A DNA stretch of 64,000 bases from Myxococcus guangdongensis (lineage in GTDB: Bacteria > Myxococcota > Myxococcia > Myxococcales > Myxococcaceae), in the NCBI RefSeq assembly GCF_024198255.1, contig NZ_JAJVKW010000003.1:868001-932000 (forward strand), in the 5' to 3' direction. Positions 36,174 to 42,916 of this stretch are shown here, in pieces. Position numbers and translations under genes: made by a program. The notes beneath the pieces are model-generated. The model was not told the DNA's origin, did not search any database, and was given only the letters and a program-made list of their open reading frames with translations. Within the stretch, counting starts at the first letter, position 1. Every line of letters starts with the position of its first letter.

Positions 36174-36845
36174 ATGATCGACGAAGTCGATCAACGCTTG
36201 AAGGCATGGGTGAGCCGCGTCGCCGGTGAAGCGCCCGTGTACCTCGGCGTCCCGGACCGCGAGGCCATCGAGCGCGGCGTGTGTCTGTACCTGCTGGAGC
36301 TGGGGCCCGCGCCTCCCACGAGGGGTGGGCGCCGCGTGCCGCTGCAGATTTCGGTCTGCTACCTGGTCACCGCCGGCGGGGCCTCGCCTGAACAGGCGCA
36401 CCGGCTGCTCGGCGAGCTGGTCTTCTCCGCGATGGAGGAGGCGGAGTTCGAGGTGGACCTGACGCCCGTGCCCGCCACCCTCTGGGCGGGCCTGCGCGTG
36501 CCACCGCGCCCTGGCTTCCGGTTGCGCTTGCCCGTGCGGCGCGAGCGGCCTCCTTCCGTGGTGCACCACGTGCGCTTCCCCGGGGGGGCCGCGGAGGCGC
36601 TCTTCGGTTGCGTCGTGGGGCCGGGAGACGTGCCCATCGCGGACGCGCTGGTGGAGTTGCCATCGCTGAGCCTCGCGACGCGCACGGATGACCAGGGCTG
36701 CTTTCGTTTTCCCCGCGTGCCACCCGTGGCCACGTTGGGGCGACTGGAGGTTCGGGCCAAGGGGGAACTGCTCGCGCTGGGACCCGAGGCGCTCGCCGCC
36801 GAACCCCAACCGCTGCTCATCCGCTTGCCGCTGAAGGAGGACTGA
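36174..36845 (+). CDS. Pvc16/DUF4255-like protein with carboxypeptidase-regulatory-like domain
   Basis: A 223-residue protein starting MIDEVDQRLKAWVSRV at ATG 36174. Residues 1-125 resemble the Pvc16 N-terminal domain (DUF4255): LYLLELGPAPPTRGGRRVPL, then ISVCYLVTAGGASPEQAHRLLGELV. This domain is found with extracellular contractile injection systems and phage-tail-like particles. Residues 143-205 look like a carboxypeptidase-regulatory beta-sandwich (DALVELPSLSLATRTDDQGCF). Pvc16-type proteins are thought to cap the tail sheath. No sheath, tube or baseplate genes are in the window, so this is an orphan or belongs to a dispersed system. It is followed by a proline-rich protein gene. Confidence 0.75.
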   Translation: MIDEVDQRLKAWVSRVAGEAPVYLGVPDREAIERGVCLYLLELGPAPPTRGGRRVPLQISVCYLVTAGGASPEQAHRLLGELVFSAMEEAEFEVDLTPVPATLWAGLRVPPRPGFRLRLPVRRERPPSVVHHVRFPGGAAEALFGCVVGPGDVPIADALVELPSLSLATRTDDQGCFRFPRVPPVATLGRLEVRAKGELLALGPEALAAEPQPLLIRLPLKED

Positions 36846-36883: not shown

Positions 36884-38125
36884 GTGGCTGAGCGCGCGCG
36901 AGGACAGGCGTCCGGTGGGTGGCTGCGCTCCGTCGCCCGGCGGGTGAAGGACTGGGCGCGGGCGGTGCTCTCCGAGGAGGAGGCGGATTTCGCCGCGGCG
37001 CTCGCCCAGGCGCGGCTGGCTCCGGAGCGTGTGCGTCCCGCGACGAGCGGGTTGCCCATCACCGTGCCCCGTGGGCCTCCGCTGCCCCCCGCGTCCATCA
37101 AGATGGTGACGGCGCCCGCGGTGAGCGTGGGACCGCCGGAACACTGGCTGCGTGATGCGCAGGCACGGCGCGCCATGGGCCCTCCGGCGGACTGGGTGGC
37201 GCGGGTGCGCAAGGTCGCGCCCCACCTGGTCGAGGGGATGACGGACGAGACTCCCCCGCCGCCCTTGAGTGAAGCGCACCTGTCTGCTCGGGCGCGCATG
37301 ATGCTCTCCGGCAATACGACGGACGCGGAGCCTCGGCGTTCCTTGCCACCTTCCGCGATGGTGCCCTCGGTCCGCACGAGGCCCTCGCCTCCGCGCCTCT
37401 CGCGCAGGGTCGAATCCAGCGCCACCGCCGAGAACGGGCGAGAGGGAGGGATTGCGCCGTCGCCCGGGGGCTCCTCGCGCGCGTCTGCCTCCGAGGTGGC
37501 GACTCCAGTGGGCGCGAGGACGTCGAGCTCCTGGGCCCATCCCTTCGCATCGCCGCCGCACGCGCCCATTCCGTCGGAGCCCGCGCCGCTGCCCGTGGAG
37601 GGCCCCACGACGCCCGTTCCGCTGATGCTGCGGGGCGCGCCGTTCCCCCATCCGGTGCGCGTCGAGTCCACGCCGGTGTCGCCCTCGGAGGTGTGCGTGC
37701 CGCCGCTGGGGGAGTTGGACAGCGATGACGGGCTCAGCTCGTCGGGATTGCCGCACGGCATCTCGGCGTCGCGGGCGTTTGGCGTGCAGCGCCCCGTGAG
37801 CACGTCGGTGGCGGCTCCTCGTGCCCGTTCCACCGCGGAGCTGTGGATTCCGCGCCGGCCGACGCGTGAAACCGTGCCCGTGTACGCGGAGCCGGTGCAT
37901 CGCGAGCAGTACATCGCGAGTGGGCTTCGGACCGCTCCCGGGAGAACGGAGACCTGGCCTGGCGAGAGCGGTCAGGGAGGGGCGCGACAGGCGGCGTATC
38001 CGGTCGAGGAAGAAGCGGGGCAGCCCTCTTCTTCTTCGCGAGACACCGACGACGCGGACGCCGCGCATGAGCTGCGCCTGTGGGAGCGGATGCGCCGGCT
38101 CGAGCGGGAGCATCGAGGGGAGTGA
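36884..38125 (+). CDS. Proline/serine-rich protein of unknown function
   Basis: A 413-residue protein starting at GTG 36884, with GGAGGAGG nearby upstream. An N-terminal amphipathic region (WLRSVARRVKDWARAVLSEE) is followed by a long Pro/Ser/Ala/Arg-rich stretch (about 45-380) that looks disordered, and a charged C-terminal helix (HELRLWERMRRLEREHRGE). There is no signal peptide and no recognised domain. It lies 38 bp after the Pvc16-like gene, so the two are probably an operon. A linker, tether or effector-loading role for the partner is conceivable but unsupported. Confidence 0.65.
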   Translation: MAERARGQASGGWLRSVARRVKDWARAVLSEEEADFAAALAQARLAPERVRPATSGLPITVPRGPPLPPASIKMVTAPAVSVGPPEHWLRDAQARRAMGPPADWVARVRKVAPHLVEGMTDETPPPPLSEAHLSARARMMLSGNTTDAEPRRSLPPSAMVPSVRTRPSPPRLSRRVESSATAENGREGGIAPSPGGSSRASASEVATPVGARTSSSWAHPFASPPHAPIPSEPAPLPVEGPTTPVPLMLRGAPFPHPVRVESTPVSPSEVCVPPLGELDSDDGLSSSGLPHGISASRAFGVQRPVSTSVAAPRARSTAELWIPRRPTRETVPVYAEPVHREQYIASGLRTAPGRTETWPGESGQGGARQAAYPVEEEAGQPSSSSRDTDDADAAHELRLWERMRRLEREHRGE

Positions 38126-38197: not shown

Positions 38198-38761
38198 TCA
38201 CGAACCCGCGCCGTCTCCTGGCTCGGTGGGGAGGGTGTCCCACCAGCGCGGCTCGTCCAGGCTCTCCGCGGGAGACGGGAAGTAGAGGAGGGTGCCCCAT
38301 CGCTCCTGGGCCCACTGCCCCACCTCGAGGGCGACTGCTCGCGCGTCACCCGACCCCAGAACTTCGGGGCGCATCGTCACCAGCGGAGCGCAGGTGAAGC
38401 GAGGATGCGCGGTGGAGGCACCCGGCAGGATGGCGAAGACGTCGAGACACCATCCCAGTGAGTCGCCATCCCATTGCACCTCGATGGCCACGGGAGGACG
38501 CGGGAGCGCGTCGAGTGCTTCACGTGCCTTCGCGCGCCACGCCTCGGGAGACCGCTCTTTCCATCGACGCTTCGCCTCCGCCTCGCCGAACGCGGGGTGG
38601 AGCGTCTCCAGTTCCCCGGAACGACAGGTGAGTTGCTCGAGCGCCGTGGCGAGCGTGCAGCCCGTGCGCTCCCGCAGCAGGAAGATGGCCGCGAAGAACT
38701 CGCGCGAGAGCAGGAGCGGGTCGACCTCGACGAGGACCTCGGGTGGGATGGACGGGCTCAT
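38198..38761 (-). CDS. Hypothetical protein
   Basis: A 187-residue cytoplasmic protein starting MSPSIPPEVLVEVDPLLL at ATG 38761, with AGGA upstream. Residues 10-60 are helical (SREFFAAIFLLRERTGCTLA), and the rest is mixed with Trp-rich stretches (IEVQWDGDSLGWCLDVFAIL, WAQERWGTLLYF). No family is recognised. It is oriented against the proline-rich gene (convergent) and divergent from the three-paralog array, so its own transcription is expected. Context gives no function. Confidence 0.6.
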   Translation of the reverse strand: MSPSIPPEVLVEVDPLLLSREFFAAIFLLRERTGCTLATALEQLTCRSGELETLHPAFGEAEAKRRWKERSPEAWRAKAREALDALPRPPVAIEVQWDGDSLGWCLDVFAILPGASTAHPRFTCAPLVTMRPEVLGSGDARAVALEVGQWAQERWGTLLYFPSPAESLDEPRWWDTLPTEPGDGAGS

Positions 38762-38891
38762 GTTTCCTGGGAGGGTCGCGGGTGAATCCTTGCACGCGCA
38801 GGGACGGCGCGGAGGGACGAAGACCTGCTCGGGCAGCTGACCCGGGCGCGGCTCCCCGTCCACGCGCCTTGCCGGCTATGCTGTGCGCGCA

Positions 38892-40217
38892 ATGTCCGAA
38901 CGCACCCGAACCGGCGCCGCCTTGACGGAGTCGCGGGCGTCGGAGGGGGACCTGCGCCGCCGCCTGGAAGGGCGGGTGGAGCTCATCGAGTCAGCCCTCC
39001 GGCGCTACCGCCTGCTCGCTGAGCAGCTCGAGTCCCGTCGCTGGCGACGCAAGGTGCGCGCCGCGCCGAGCCTGCTTCGTGAGGTCGGAGAGCTGGAGGG
39101 TGCGCTGACCGAGGCGCTGGCACAGACCGAGCGACGATGCGACCTGGAGGGCGCGACGCACGACGCGCCGATTCGGAAGACGGTGCGGCGTGTGCGCAAA
39201 CTCCGGGCCCAGGTCGCCACCCTGGTCGACAAGAGGATGTACGAACTGCTGCTCCTCTCCGAGTCTCTGCCGCTGGAAACAGCGCTCGCGAAGCTCGAAG
39301 CCGCCTGTCTCCAGGAGGTCTCGCTCGAGCGGACACCGGGCGAACCGTTCTCGCTGCGCATCGGCTTCGTGGGCGGAGTGGTGCAGTACCTGCTGTCCAT
39401 GCTCTTGGTCCTGGGTGGATTCCTGGGGTGGGTGCTGTTCTTCGCGCTGGACGCCTGGCTCGGCCTGGGGGCGGCGCTGGCCATCACCGTGTCGTCGATG
39501 GGGCTGCTCATGTTCCTCACGGCGACCCTGTTGGGGCGTGAGGCACCGGACGTCGCCTGGCTGACGCCGGAGCGACTGGTGTGGATGGCCTCAGGAGGGG
39601 CGCCACCCGTGGCCGTGCGCCTGGATTCATTGGGCGAGGACGCCATTCGAATGGAGGCCGAGCTGGATACGGTGACGGTTCGAGGCGACAAGTACCTTCG
39701 ACTGTCCCGGCTCGGTCGTGGAGAGGCGGCGAGGTTGCGCGTGTTGCTCGAGTTGTTCCGTGCGCCTCAGGTCCGTGCCAACGCCTCGCGCGCCGAGCGA
39801 CCCGTGACGCTCGTGACCTATCCCGCGCAGCTTCGTCGCAACAAGGCGTGGACTCCGGGCCAGCTCGTGCTGTCGCATCGGGGTGCCTACTTCATTCCGG
39901 GCTCGGGCGCGGATGCGGGAGCGACCTTGCTGCGGACCGCGACGGGACGCAGGCTGGATTCACGGGTCGAGATGCCCTGGGTGCTGGAGGCACTTCGCTG
40001 GCATCCCGAGTCGGAGCTGGACGCGCTGCTGGCGCGGGCCATCGCGCAGTCAGGCGGAGTCGCCTGGGCCTCCGTGGATGTGCGCGTGTCTCCCGATGTG
40101 GAGGAGGAGCAGGACGTCCACCTGTCGCGAGGCACGGAGGTCCTGGTGGGCAAGCCGGCCTCCGAGGACCGAGGCACGGTCCTCCAACTGCTCCACGGCT
40201 GGGGTGGTGGGGCATAA
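38892..40217 (+). CDS. Tandem-paralog membrane protein, copy A
   Basis: A 441-residue protein of a family with three neighbouring copies. The start MSERTRTG is at ATG 38892; an ATG at 38883 is also in frame. Layout: basic helical or coiled-coil N-terminus (about 15-140, with LEGRVELIESALRRYRLL), two membrane segments (about 155-225), then two beta-rich domains. The first begins at AWLTPERLVWMA (WLTPERL..V.LDSLG pattern, like bacterial PH domains) and the second at ERPVTLVTYPAQLRR (through GQLVLSHRGAYFIP). Between them is a helix conserved in copy B (LRVLLELFRAPQVRANASRA). No known function. The gene seems to have its own TATGCT-containing start region, matched in copy B. Confidence 0.75.
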   Translation: MSERTRTGAALTESRASEGDLRRRLEGRVELIESALRRYRLLAEQLESRRWRRKVRAAPSLLREVGELEGALTEALAQTERRCDLEGATHDAPIRKTVRRVRKLRAQVATLVDKRMYELLLLSESLPLETALAKLEAACLQEVSLERTPGEPFSLRIGFVGGVVQYLLSMLLVLGGFLGWVLFFALDAWLGLGAALAITVSSMGLLMFLTATLLGREAPDVAWLTPERLVWMASGGAPPVAVRLDSLGEDAIRMEAELDTVTVRGDKYLRLSRLGRGEAARLRVLLELFRAPQVRANASRAERPVTLVTYPAQLRRNKAWTPGQLVLSHRGAYFIPGSGADAGATLLRTATGRRLDSRVEMPWVLEALRWHPESELDALLARAIAQSGGVAWASVDVRVSPDVEEEQDVHLSRGTEVLVGKPASEDRGTVLQLLHGWGGGA

Positions 40218-40264
40218 CGCTCACCGCCCAACGCGGGAGCTTGTCTGTCTATGCTGTGAGCGCG

Positions 40265-41599
40265 ATGTCCGAACGCGTCCGCGCCGCCAGCGCCGTCCTG
40301 TCCGAGCCGCCAGCGTCGGAAGAAGACCTGCGTCTGCGCCTGGAAGGCAAGGTGGAGTTCATCGAGGTGGCCCTCTATCGCTACGCGCCGCTCGTGGATG
40401 CCCTCGCGTCACGCCACTGGTTGCGCAACCTGCGCGCGACGCCGGACCTGTTGCGCAAGGTCCGCGAACTGGAGGGCCTGCTGCCCGAGGTGCTGGTGCA
40501 CCTGGAGCAGCGGGGTAACCAGGACGGCTGGCCCCGTGGCTCACGGATTCCGAGCCGGTTGCGTCGGTTGCGCAAGGTCCGGGAGCGGGTCTTCAAACTG
40601 CTCCATCGCAAGGTGGGCATGTTGCTCCTGCTCGACGAGCACACGCCCCAGCGCGAGGCACTCGCGAGGCTGGAGTCCTATTGTCTCGAGGAGTCCCCCG
40701 TCGCTCCGACACCGGACGGGTCCTTCGCGATGCACGTCGGCTCCGCGCCCGAGGTGATGCGCTACGTCTATCCCGTGTTGGCCTTCATGGTGGGCTCGCT
40801 GGCGACCGTGGGGCTCATGGCCCACCAGTTCTCCATGTTGGCGGCGATGCTGTTCGGCCTCCTCATGTTCTTTCTGTGGCCCGTGCCGGCCGTCCTGATG
40901 GCCATGTGGATGACCCGAACCCCCGGGGCCGCATGGCTGACGCCGGAGCGACTCGTGTGGTTGGCCCCACGTGGGGAGCCGTCCGCGTCCGTGCGACTGG
41001 ACTCGCTGGGAGATGCCAGCGTCCAACTGGAGCACGCGCGAAGAGGGACGCTGCGACTGCGGGGCAATCGGGGGGTCCGCCTTCCCCGGCTCGGTCGTGA
41101 GAAGGCGGCGAGGCTGCGCGTATGGCTCGAGCTGTTCCGCGCGCCCCAGGTCCGGGCCAACGCCGCGCGAGCCGAGCGACCGGTGGAGCTGGTGACCTGG
41201 CCCGCGCGGCTTCGTCGCCACGGGGCCTGGACCTCGGGCCAGCTCTTGATGTCGCCTCGAGGCGTCTCCTTCCTCCCAGCGCCCGAGCCAGGCGCCGCGC
41301 TGATGAAGGCCGCGACGGGGCGGACGCTGGACGGACGCGTCGAGCTGGCCTGGGTGCTGGAGGGGCTTCGCTGGCAGCCCGAGTCGGAGCTGGAGGCCTT
41401 GCTGGCACGTGCGGTGGAGGCGTCCGGTGGCGCGGCCTGGCCTTCCGAGGAGGTGCGGGTGGCTCCTGGTGTCGAGGGGGCACGGGAGGTCCACCTGGTG
41501 CGTGGCGAAGAGGCGCTCGTGGGCATGCCCGGCAAGGAGGAGCGGAACACCGTCCTCGAGCGACTTCACGCCTGGGCATCTCGCGTGACGACCCGGTAG
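40265..41599 (+). CDS. Tandem-paralog membrane protein, copy B
   Basis: A 444-residue paralogue of the preceding gene, with the same layout: N-terminal helices (LEGKVEFIEVALYRYAPL), two membrane segments (about 160-215), then two PH-like beta domains. The region AWLTPERLVWLAP, then VRLDSLGDASVQLEH, and FRAPQVRANAARAERPVELV, is nearly superposable on copy A. It starts MSERVRAASAV at ATG 40265, 47 bp after copy A. The 14 bases before the start and the first codons resemble those of copy A, so the duplication included the promoter or start region. Function unknown. Confidence 0.75.
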   Translation: MSERVRAASAVLSEPPASEEDLRLRLEGKVEFIEVALYRYAPLVDALASRHWLRNLRATPDLLRKVRELEGLLPEVLVHLEQRGNQDGWPRGSRIPSRLRRLRKVRERVFKLLHRKVGMLLLLDEHTPQREALARLESYCLEESPVAPTPDGSFAMHVGSAPEVMRYVYPVLAFMVGSLATVGLMAHQFSMLAAMLFGLLMFFLWPVPAVLMAMWMTRTPGAAWLTPERLVWLAPRGEPSASVRLDSLGDASVQLEHARRGTLRLRGNRGVRLPRLGREKAARLRVWLELFRAPQVRANAARAERPVELVTWPARLRRHGAWTSGQLLMSPRGVSFLPAPEPGAALMKAATGRTLDGRVELAWVLEGLRWQPESELEALLARAVEASGGAAWPSEEVRVAPGVEGAREVHLVRGEEALVGMPGKEERNTVLERLHAWASRVTTR

Positions 41600-41611
41600 C
41601 CTCTCGAAGTC

Positions 41612-42916
41612 ATGTCCCGACAAGACCTCGCCAAGAGGGTGCCCCGCGAAGGCCCCGCCTCCGAGGCCGTGCGTCTCCAACTGGAGGGGCGCGCGGAGGT
41701 CTTGGAGTCCGCGCATGAGCGCACCGCCGCGCTGGAGTCCGCGCTGCGCAGCCGCGCCTGGAAGCGCAAGCTGCGCGCGAAGCCCACGCTCGTCGAGGAG
41801 TGGCTGGAGCACCAACCCCGAGTCACGGAGGCCCTGGCGCACGCGAAGCGCCGCGCCGAGCGCGAGGCCTGGCCTGAATCGTTGCCCCTGATGCGCGTGC
41901 TGCGGGAGCTGGACGCGAGAGCGAAGCGACTGGGGCCGCTGGTGCGACGGCGGCTCTCCCGCCACACGTTCGTGTCCGGACCCATCGCGCTGCCCGCGGA
42001 GCTGCGCCGGCTGGACCTGCTCGCGAAGCAGCGGGTGTCCCAGACGCTCGAGGAGGGCGAGGTGTTGCTGTTCCAGACCCAGCGCTCCGGCTCGGTGCCC
42101 GTCCGGCAGACGCCGCTGCGCTGGTCCTCACTGGCGCTGGCGGTGCTGGGCGTGTCCGCGCTCATCTCCTTCCTGCCGGTGGATGGGCGACCGGTCGGTG
42201 GCTGGCTGTTGATGGCGCTCCTCATCGCCCCCCTGGTCATGATGCTGCTACGCTCCGGCTGGCTCACGCTGACGAGCGAGCGGCTCATGTGGAACCCGGT
42301 GTTCGGTGAGGCCGTGTCGGTGCCCCTGTCCTCCATCGCGCCGGGGGGAATCGAGGTGGGCCGGATGTTCTCCCTGAAGGTGGACGGGACACCGGGCGTC
42401 ACGGTGCCCTACCTCATGGAGTCCAGCCTGGTCGCCACGCTGCTCGAGCTGCACACCCAGGCTCCGCTGCGAGGGCTGGCGCGCTCTGGGGTGCGGCTGG
42501 AGAACGCGGTCCTCTATCCGGCGACGCTGCGTGAGGACGGGCAAGGGCGCTCGGGCTGGGCGGTGCTGCGGCCCGGCGGCGTGTCCTTCGTCCCCGATGA
42601 CCAGGGCCCCCAGGCGCTCGCCACCGTGCTGGGGCGGCCGAGCGCGATTCAGGCCGAGGTGGGCTGGGTGTTGGACCAGCTGAGATGGATGCCCGACTCG
42701 GAGCTCGACGGCGTGCTGGCGCGGGTGGTGGAGGCCACCGGGGGCGTGAGCTGGTCAGCCTGGGAGACCTCGCGACGCGGCGATGTGCCGCTGTGGAAGC
42801 GACTGACGCTCGCCCACGGCCATCGGGTGCTCAGTGGACAGGTGGAGTGGTCCTCGCTGAGCGCGACCGAGAAGGTGCTGCGCTTCTGGCCGGAGGGCGG
42901 AGGTCACCCGAAGTGA
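41612..42916 (+). CDS. Tandem-paralog membrane protein, copy C (diverged)
   Basis: A 434-residue third member of the array, 12 bp after copy B, starting MSRQDLAKRVPREG. It keeps the basic helical N-terminus (LEGRAEVLESAHERTAALESA), two membrane segments (about 170-215), LTSERLMWNPVFGEAVSVPL in place of LTPERLVWMA, a PH-like C-terminal half with GWAVLRPGGVSFVPDDQ, and the shared LDQLRWMPDSELDGVLARVV segment. It is clearly less similar to A and B than they are to each other. Tight spacing means B and C are probably cotranscribed. Function unknown. Confidence 0.75.
   Translation: MSRQDLAKRVPREGPASEAVRLQLEGRAEVLESAHERTAALESALRSRAWKRKLRAKPTLVEEWLEHQPRVTEALAHAKRRAEREAWPESLPLMRVLRELDARAKRLGPLVRRRLSRHTFVSGPIALPAELRRLDLLAKQRVSQTLEEGEVLLFQTQRSGSVPVRQTPLRWSSLALAVLGVSALISFLPVDGRPVGGWLLMALLIAPLVMMLLRSGWLTLTSERLMWNPVFGEAVSVPLSSIAPGGIEVGRMFSLKVDGTPGVTVPYLMESSLVATLLELHTQAPLRGLARSGVRLENAVLYPATLREDGQGRSGWAVLRPGGVSFVPDDQGPQALATVLGRPSAIQAEVGWVLDQLRWMPDSELDGVLARVVEATGGVSWSAWETSRRGDVPLWKRLTLAHGHRVLSGQVEWSSLSATEKVLRFWPEGGGHPK

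What the first reader, a model, noticed from the sequence alone, without database searches (positions are those of the whole stretch)
38892..42916. Three tandem paralogous coiled-coil membrane proteins of an unrecognised family
Three consecutive genes (441, 444 and 434 residues) share one layout: a basic helical N-terminus, two membrane helices, then two beta-rich modules with WLTPERLVW / VRLDSLG and a conserved helix LFRAPQVRAN. A and B are close and C has diverged, so two rounds of tandem duplication are likely. I cannot name the family. The PH-like reading of the beta modules is an inference. Tandem retention of three diverging copies suggests a multi-subunit membrane assembly.
Basis: partly seen in the sequence, partly recalled or inferred. 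Interest (0 to 1): 0.65.

Follow-up and report, generated by a model that had tools for sequence, protein, structure and literature searches.

The report
PH-fold membrane proteins beside eroded injection machine
Three neighbouring genes make related inner-membrane proteins of an unnamed family found almost only in one group of predatory soil bacteria; relatives show that they sit in what is left of a phage-tail-like injection machine, so they may once have served that machine at the membrane.

Summary
A (38892-40217), B (40265-41599) and C (41612-42916) are intact paralogues (A/B about 53% identical, A/C about 33%) without any Pfam, NCBIfam or PADLOC match. AlphaFold2 models of A and C (pLDDT 88, 85) show a helical N-domain, a membrane hairpin inserted between strands 1 and 2 of a PH-like (GRAM/GLUE-type) domain, and a second, split PH-like domain. 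The PH reading is supported: well for module 1, weakly for module 2. "Coiled coil" is not. A/C is an old split; A/B is recent, and B is degraded in the nearest relative.

The main result lies outside the given coordinates. Relatives carry a contractile injection system (CIS) at this locus (Pvc16-like, sheath, tube, spike, gp25, baseplate J, Tail_P2_I) with A-C beside it. The window keeps only the Pvc16-like gene (36174-36845) and a proline-rich gene (36884-38125). A full-length family gene lies within 17 kb of the Pvc16-like gene in 37 of 50 decidable genomes, in three arrangements.

Most likely A/B/C were membrane-side accessories of that CIS, kept after it eroded (about 0.4). The main rival is a CIS-independent membrane scaffold, because further family copies lie elsewhere.

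The parts
38892..40217 (+). gene A, 441 aa: helical N-domain, membrane hairpin, two PH-like modules
   Evidence: ORF and translation; AlphaFold2 pLDDT 88.2, pTM 0.80
38943..39308 (+). A residues 18-139: helical N-domain, also found in a separate protein encoded beside dnaN
   Evidence: secondary structure; homologues
39375..39539 (+). A residues 162-216: membrane hairpin, inserted between strand 1 (155-157) and strand 2 (221-224) of PH-like module 1
39552..39761 (+). A residues 221-290: rest of PH-like module 1, with invariant R228 and W231
39813..40205 (+). A residues 308-438: PH-like module 2, split by three helices
   Evidence: PH matches at Z 6.6-7.8
40265..41599 (+). gene B, 444 aa: recent duplicate of A
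   Evidence: tree
41612..42916 (+). gene C, 434 aa: older paralogue with the same layout
   Evidence: AlphaFold2 pLDDT 85.2, pTM 0.76; PH matches up to Z 9.6
36174..36845 (+). Pvc16-like (DUF4255-like) gene with CarboxypepD_reg-like C-terminus; first gene of the CIS locus in relatives
   Evidence: Pvc16_N E 0.009 and CarboxypepD_reg E 3.5e-5, both below curated cut-offs; orthologues directly beside sheath and tube genes
36884..38125 (+). g413: proline-rich protein; its homologues lie between tube and CIS_tube genes in intact loci
38198..38863 (-). g221: opposite-strand gene of unknown family between g413 and A, seen only here and in G003

Best explanation
A, B and C are inner-membrane proteins. 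A helical N-domain and two PH-like modules lie on the cytoplasmic side, and a membrane hairpin threaded through the first PH module holds that module on the membrane surface (fold and hairpin shown by model; orientation inferred). They belong to a group whose genes stand at the edge of a contractile injection system locus in several genera of one family (shown by synteny). The most likely role is accessory to that machine at the inner membrane: holding or controlling the assembled tube-sheath or baseplate from the cytoplasmic face, with the PH modules as protein or lipid contacts (inferred). In this genome sheath, tube and baseplate genes are gone, while the Pvc16-like gene, g413 and A/B/C remain under purifying selection, so the remnant probably still has some function that does not need the syringe (inferred).
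For: Full CIS of at least ten recognisable genes directly beside A-C in G009, G002 and G004, beside A in G020, and beside one family gene in G123, G126, G033 and G086 (Pfam identities). Family gene within 17 kb of the Pvc16-like gene in 37 of 50 decidable genomes, in three arrangements: 3' of the CIS (g1, g33, g34), 0.16 kb 5' of Pvc16 (g8), and just 3' of Pvc16 in reduced loci (g31). Erosion series from intact loci to the window, with relics of CIS_tube and X161 in G010 and G016. dN/dS below 1 for A (0.24-0.62) and C (0.32-0.72) in intact and eroded lineages. Confident models with two cytosol-type modules and a membrane hairpin. Precedent: CisA, a membrane protein needed for CIS firing in Streptomyces (PMC12237407).
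Against: Family copies elsewhere in the genomes are not beside these CIS genes, and one clade has lost the membrane helices. G019 and G118 have the intact CIS without an adjacent family gene. A-C persist where the syringe is gone. In g1, g33 and g34 the family gene is divergent from the opposite-strand gene X258, so it is not in the CIS operon. The two other CIS loci of this genome have no family gene. Contact with CIS parts was not tested.
Confidence: 0.4

Rival explanations
1. A/B/C are general membrane-anchored PH-like scaffolds of Myxococcaceae. The CIS is an old neighbour at this place and they do not work with it.
For: Dispersed copies up to 11 per genome in g8; one dispersed clade sits inside a DUF58/VWA-type gene cluster; A-C outlive the CIS; independent transcription is likely in intact loci.
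Against: The family gene stays at the CIS in three different arrangements across genera, which simple vertical inheritance in place does not fully explain.
Confidence: 0.32
2. A/B/C protect the producer's own membrane, as immunity or membrane-shielding proteins against the CIS or its cargo of kin; they were kept as orphan immunity genes after the weapon was lost.
For: Fast evolution, tandem duplication and persistence after loss of the syringe fit immunity genes; PH proteins of the YdbS/YdbT type act in a bacteriocin system (PMC8657885).
Against: No toxin gene is paired with them; a 2023 review says no immunity proteins against eCIS effectors had been identified (PMC10598620); M. xanthus-sized genomes lack both weapon and A-C.
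Confidence: 0.15
3. One reading: A, B and C are subunits of one obligate multi-subunit membrane complex.
For: Co-directional genes with short gaps; A and C occur together in most genus g1 loci.
Against: B exists only in this lineage and is degraded in G003; g31, g8, g33 and g34 loci have a single family gene; G020 has A without C beside it.
Confidence: 0.08

Closest known systems
CisA, membrane adaptor of the Streptomyces coelicolor cytoplasmic CIS (PMC12237407)
   Same: Membrane protein encoded with a CIS; a cytoplasmic part could meet the machine; proposed as recruitment and firing factor.
   Different: CisA is single-pass with an unstructured N-terminus and a periplasmic substrate-binding-like domain. 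A/B/C have a two-helix hairpin, a helical N-domain and two PH-like modules. No sequence comparison with CisA was run, and CIS function of A/B/C is untested.
Bacterial PH proteins with membrane helices (bPH_2, YdbS/YdbT, DdE/DdF)
   Same: Membrane-helix pair next to a PH-like domain; LT-x-x-RL motif at the first strand after the hairpin.
   Different: No bPH_2 match by Pfam in 46 members and no significant profile-profile match to bPH_2 proteins of the same genomes; extra N-terminal helical domain and a second PH-like module without membrane helices.
PHb domain PF08000 / DUF1696 (3dcx, 3hsa)
   Same: Fold of module 1: C at Z 7.9, 2.6 A over 83 residues; A at Z 6.8, 2.2 A over 84 residues.
   Different: PHb is soluble and forms five-fold rings (PMC2817789 abstract); no sequence match to PF08000 was found.
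GRAM/GLUE-type PH domains (Lam6, MTMR2, EAP45/Vps36)
   Same: Best structural matches of C module 1: Z 9.6 (89 residues, 3.1 A), 9.5 and 9.2.
   Different: Membrane hairpin between strands 1 and 2; no significant sequence match (Vps36 best E 0.11).

Membership tests
PH-like superfold (module 1) | Strand barrel closed by a C-terminal helix, matched to solved PH domains | tested here: met
   C: 15 chains at Z 8 or more, all listed top rows PH/GRAM/GLUE. A: best Z 7.9, at background level by itself.
PH-like superfold (module 2) | Strand barrel closed by a C-terminal helix, matched to solved PH domains | tested here: inconclusive
   PH matches to Rtt106, Trio, OCRL and SPRED1 at Z 6.6-7.8 only; strand order interrupted by three helices.
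bPH_2 (PF03703, YdbS/YdbT) | Match to the PF03703 sequence model | tested here: not met
   No PF03703 match at E <= 1 in any of 46 members; hhalign against bPH_2 proteins of the same genus not significant, though that profile was shallow.
bPH_2 (PF03703, YdbS/YdbT) | Two membrane helices beside a PH-like domain | tested here: met
Contractile injection system locus (history of the window's locus) | Sheath, tube, spike, gp25 and baseplate genes at the same chromosomal place in relatives | tested here: met
   Pfam identities and gene orders.
Working contractile injection system in this window | Sheath, tube and baseplate genes present | tested here: not met
   The window has only the Pvc16-like gene and g413; other CIS loci exist in this genome.
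CisA-type CIS membrane adaptor | Single membrane segment with periplasmic substrate-binding-like C-terminal domain | tested here: not met
   Models show a hairpin and PH-like C-terminal modules against the CisA description.
CisA-type CIS membrane adaptor | Needed for CIS membrane recruitment or firing | not testable with these tools
   Needs mutants and imaging.

The most novel reading that the evidence does not exclude
A PH-domain-based inner-membrane docking module of a so far undescribed Myxococcaceae contractile injection system that outlived the syringe and, with the Pvc16-like protein and g413, now forms a membrane assembly that does not inject.
Probability: 0.2. Interest if true: 0.7.

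Novelty: new variant of a known kind. Interest (0 to 1): 0.45.

Why it matters
How cell-bound contractile machines meet the inner membrane is an open question, and CisA of Streptomyces is a recent worked example. A structurally different membrane protein family beside a CIS, in predatory bacteria that offer a natural series of intact, half-eroded and lost loci, makes that question testable in a second system. The series also shows which genes of a CIS locus are kept when the syringe goes.

Tried and rejected
Pfam, NCBIfam and PADLOC gave nothing significant for A/B/C. The PDB sequence profile search gave only an NADH-dehydrogenase match (E 2e-4), judged compositional. Profile comparison of module 1 with bPH_2, and of module 1 with module 2, was not significant. 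A genome-contig search with C alone found nothing. DH-PH-PH FARP1 as top Foldseek hit (E 1e-4) was rejected as a whole-length match: TM 0.15, rmsd 29. Viral structures: no match below E 1e-3. Syntaxin-like matches to the N-domain (Z 7.0-7.6) are within background for helical bundles. Simple orthology of A between G000 and G003 is doubtful, because its ends are about 90-95% and its middle 60-75% identical, so dN/dS of A for that pair is rough. No paper in the held library joins PH domains and CIS. I considered that g413-like genes might be tape measures; nothing supports it beyond position.

Full report
Observation. The three ORFs are real, intact and co-directional at the stated coordinates. 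A and B are about 53% identical, A and C about 33%. A search with A found no other full-length copy in the genome, only a fourth match limited to the N-terminal domain, in a gene beside dnaN on another contig. None of the three has a significant match in Pfam, NCBIfam or PADLOC, nor do 46 family members scanned one by one. Weak Pfam matches include PH-type domains (Vps36 in four members; POB3_N and TFIIH PH once each), none significant.

Structure. AlphaFold2 on family alignments gave confident models of A (pLDDT 88, pTM 0.80) and C (85, 0.76) with the same order of elements: about five helices, a short strand, two membrane helices, six strands and a helix, then three strands, three helices, three strands and a final helix. 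PH matches run from before to after the membrane hairpin (A 142-295, C 143-288), so the hairpin appears to be inserted between strands 1 and 2 of module 1. For C the best matches are Lam6 PH-like (Z 9.6, 89 residues, 3.1 A), MTMR2 (9.5) and EAP45 GLUE (9.2); bacterial PHb 3dcx scores 7.9 at 2.6 A. For A the best is 7.9, which taken alone is background level, but nearly all rows are PH domains. Module 2 matches PH domains only at Z 6.6-7.8. Cytoplasmic orientation of both ends is inferred from the basic N-terminus and the very short hairpin loop.

Distribution and history. Members, full-length or N-domain only, occur in 80 of 145 genomes searched in the order, all of one family (f1), with up to 11 matches per genome in genus g8. 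In the phylum sample one genome outside the family has a strong match (G155, E 2e-19; not examined) and two have marginal ones. In a maximum-likelihood tree of 69 members the A clade is supported 100/100, and B is sister to the A genes of G000 and G003 (100/99). A clade without membrane helices nests among membrane-type members, so its hairpin loss looks secondary. G004 has its own second A-type copy from a separate duplication.

Context. The gene two places upstream of A on the same strand (36174-36845) gives sub-threshold matches to Pvc16_N and CarboxypepD_reg. In relative G013 the next gene is a T4 gp19-type tail tube protein (E 1e-17). Reading further relatives showed an entire contractile injection system at this place. 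In G009, G002, G004 and G020 the order is Pvc16-like, sheath, tube, g413-like, CIS_tube, VgrG-like, a PAAR-sized gene, gp25, baseplate J, Tail_P2_I, X354, X161, the opposite-strand X258, then A and C (Pfam); G004 has a second A-type copy and G020 shows no C. Genera g33 and g34 have the same order with one family gene. Genus g8 has the family gene 0.16 kb upstream of Pvc16. Genus g31 has Pvc16, a short gene in the g413 position, and the family gene.

Erosion series. G010 and G016 keep Pvc16, sheath, tube and g413, with relics of CIS_tube (G010) or X161 (G016). G007, G008, G013 and G014 keep Pvc16, tube and g413. G003 keeps tube, g413 and a Pvc16 that has lost its regulatory domain. The window keeps Pvc16 and g413; an opposite-strand gene, g221, stands between g413 and A. 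The two M. xanthus-sized genomes read here (G017, G021) keep Pvc16 and X354 and have neither CIS core nor A-C at the locus. The tools give no genus names; Myxococcus and Corallococcus are my own reading of the genome sizes.

Strength of the link. By coordinates, of 55 genomes with the Pvc16-like gene 37 have a full-length family gene within 17 kb and 13 do not (nine M. xanthus-sized genomes, two of g30, G019 and G118). Five cannot be decided because of contig ends or fragments. These are not 37 independent events; the three arrangements are the better count. Against the link, dispersed copies stand at unrelated places, one clade inside a DUF58/VWA-type cluster, G019 and G118 have an intact CIS without the gene, and the two other CIS loci of this genome (C6 and C14) have none.

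Selection. Between close pairs dN/dS is 0.24-0.62 for A (0.94 in one comparison of paralogues) and 0.32-0.72 for C. Most core CIS genes are at 0.09-0.26, with one tube comparison at 0.56. Pvc16 is at 0.08-0.17 within the genus, also where the syringe is gone. So A and C are kept but evolve fast, and Pvc16 is kept strictly, which argues that the remnant is not mere debris. These are simple Nei-Gojobori values.

Mechanism and comparison. The best-supported reading is a membrane-side accessory of this CIS, comparable in role to CisA of Streptomyces but of a different build. Shown: the paralogy, the locus, the erosion series and, by model, the fold and hairpin. Inferred: orientation, contact with CIS parts, docking. 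Rivals are a CIS-independent PH scaffold and an orphan immunity or membrane-protection role; YdbS/YdbT-like PH proteins act in a bacteriocin system. I put these at 0.4, 0.32 and 0.15, with 0.08 for an obligate A-B-C complex.

Noticed in passing
L004:613-1890 (own genome, contig C11) and equivalents: The N-terminal helical domain of A/B/C recurs in a separate protein of about 400 aa without the PH modules, encoded directly downstream of dnaN in most of the 20 loci checked, including small genomes that lack A-C.
   Followed up: partly
36174-36845: The Pvc16-like gene is strictly conserved (dN/dS 0.08-0.10 in genomes without sheath) and present in all 27 genomes of the genus searched, even where the CIS core is gone; it may have a function of its own.
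   Followed up: partly
38892-40217 against L034:7007-8329: A of this genome and of G003 is mosaic: ends about 90-95% identical, middle 60-75%, with higher dS than C and most flanking genes, which suggests recombination in this stretch.
   Followed up: no
L054, L062, L065: A dispersed clade of the family lies inside a conserved cluster of DUF58-like and VWA-like genes with an ABC transporter, in three genomes; the names are read from sequence, not searched.
   Followed up: no
L167 and L168 (own genome, C6:428-446 kb and C14:88-106 kb): This genome has two further CIS loci with Pvc16_N and gp19 matches over cut-off and sheath genes, neither with an A/B/C-type gene.
   Followed up: partly
L164:12317-14673 and equivalents: The intact CIS ends with two putative membrane proteins (X354, X161) and an opposite-strand multi-pass protein (X258), all without a confident family; X354 also survives in M. 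xanthus-sized genomes.
   Followed up: partly
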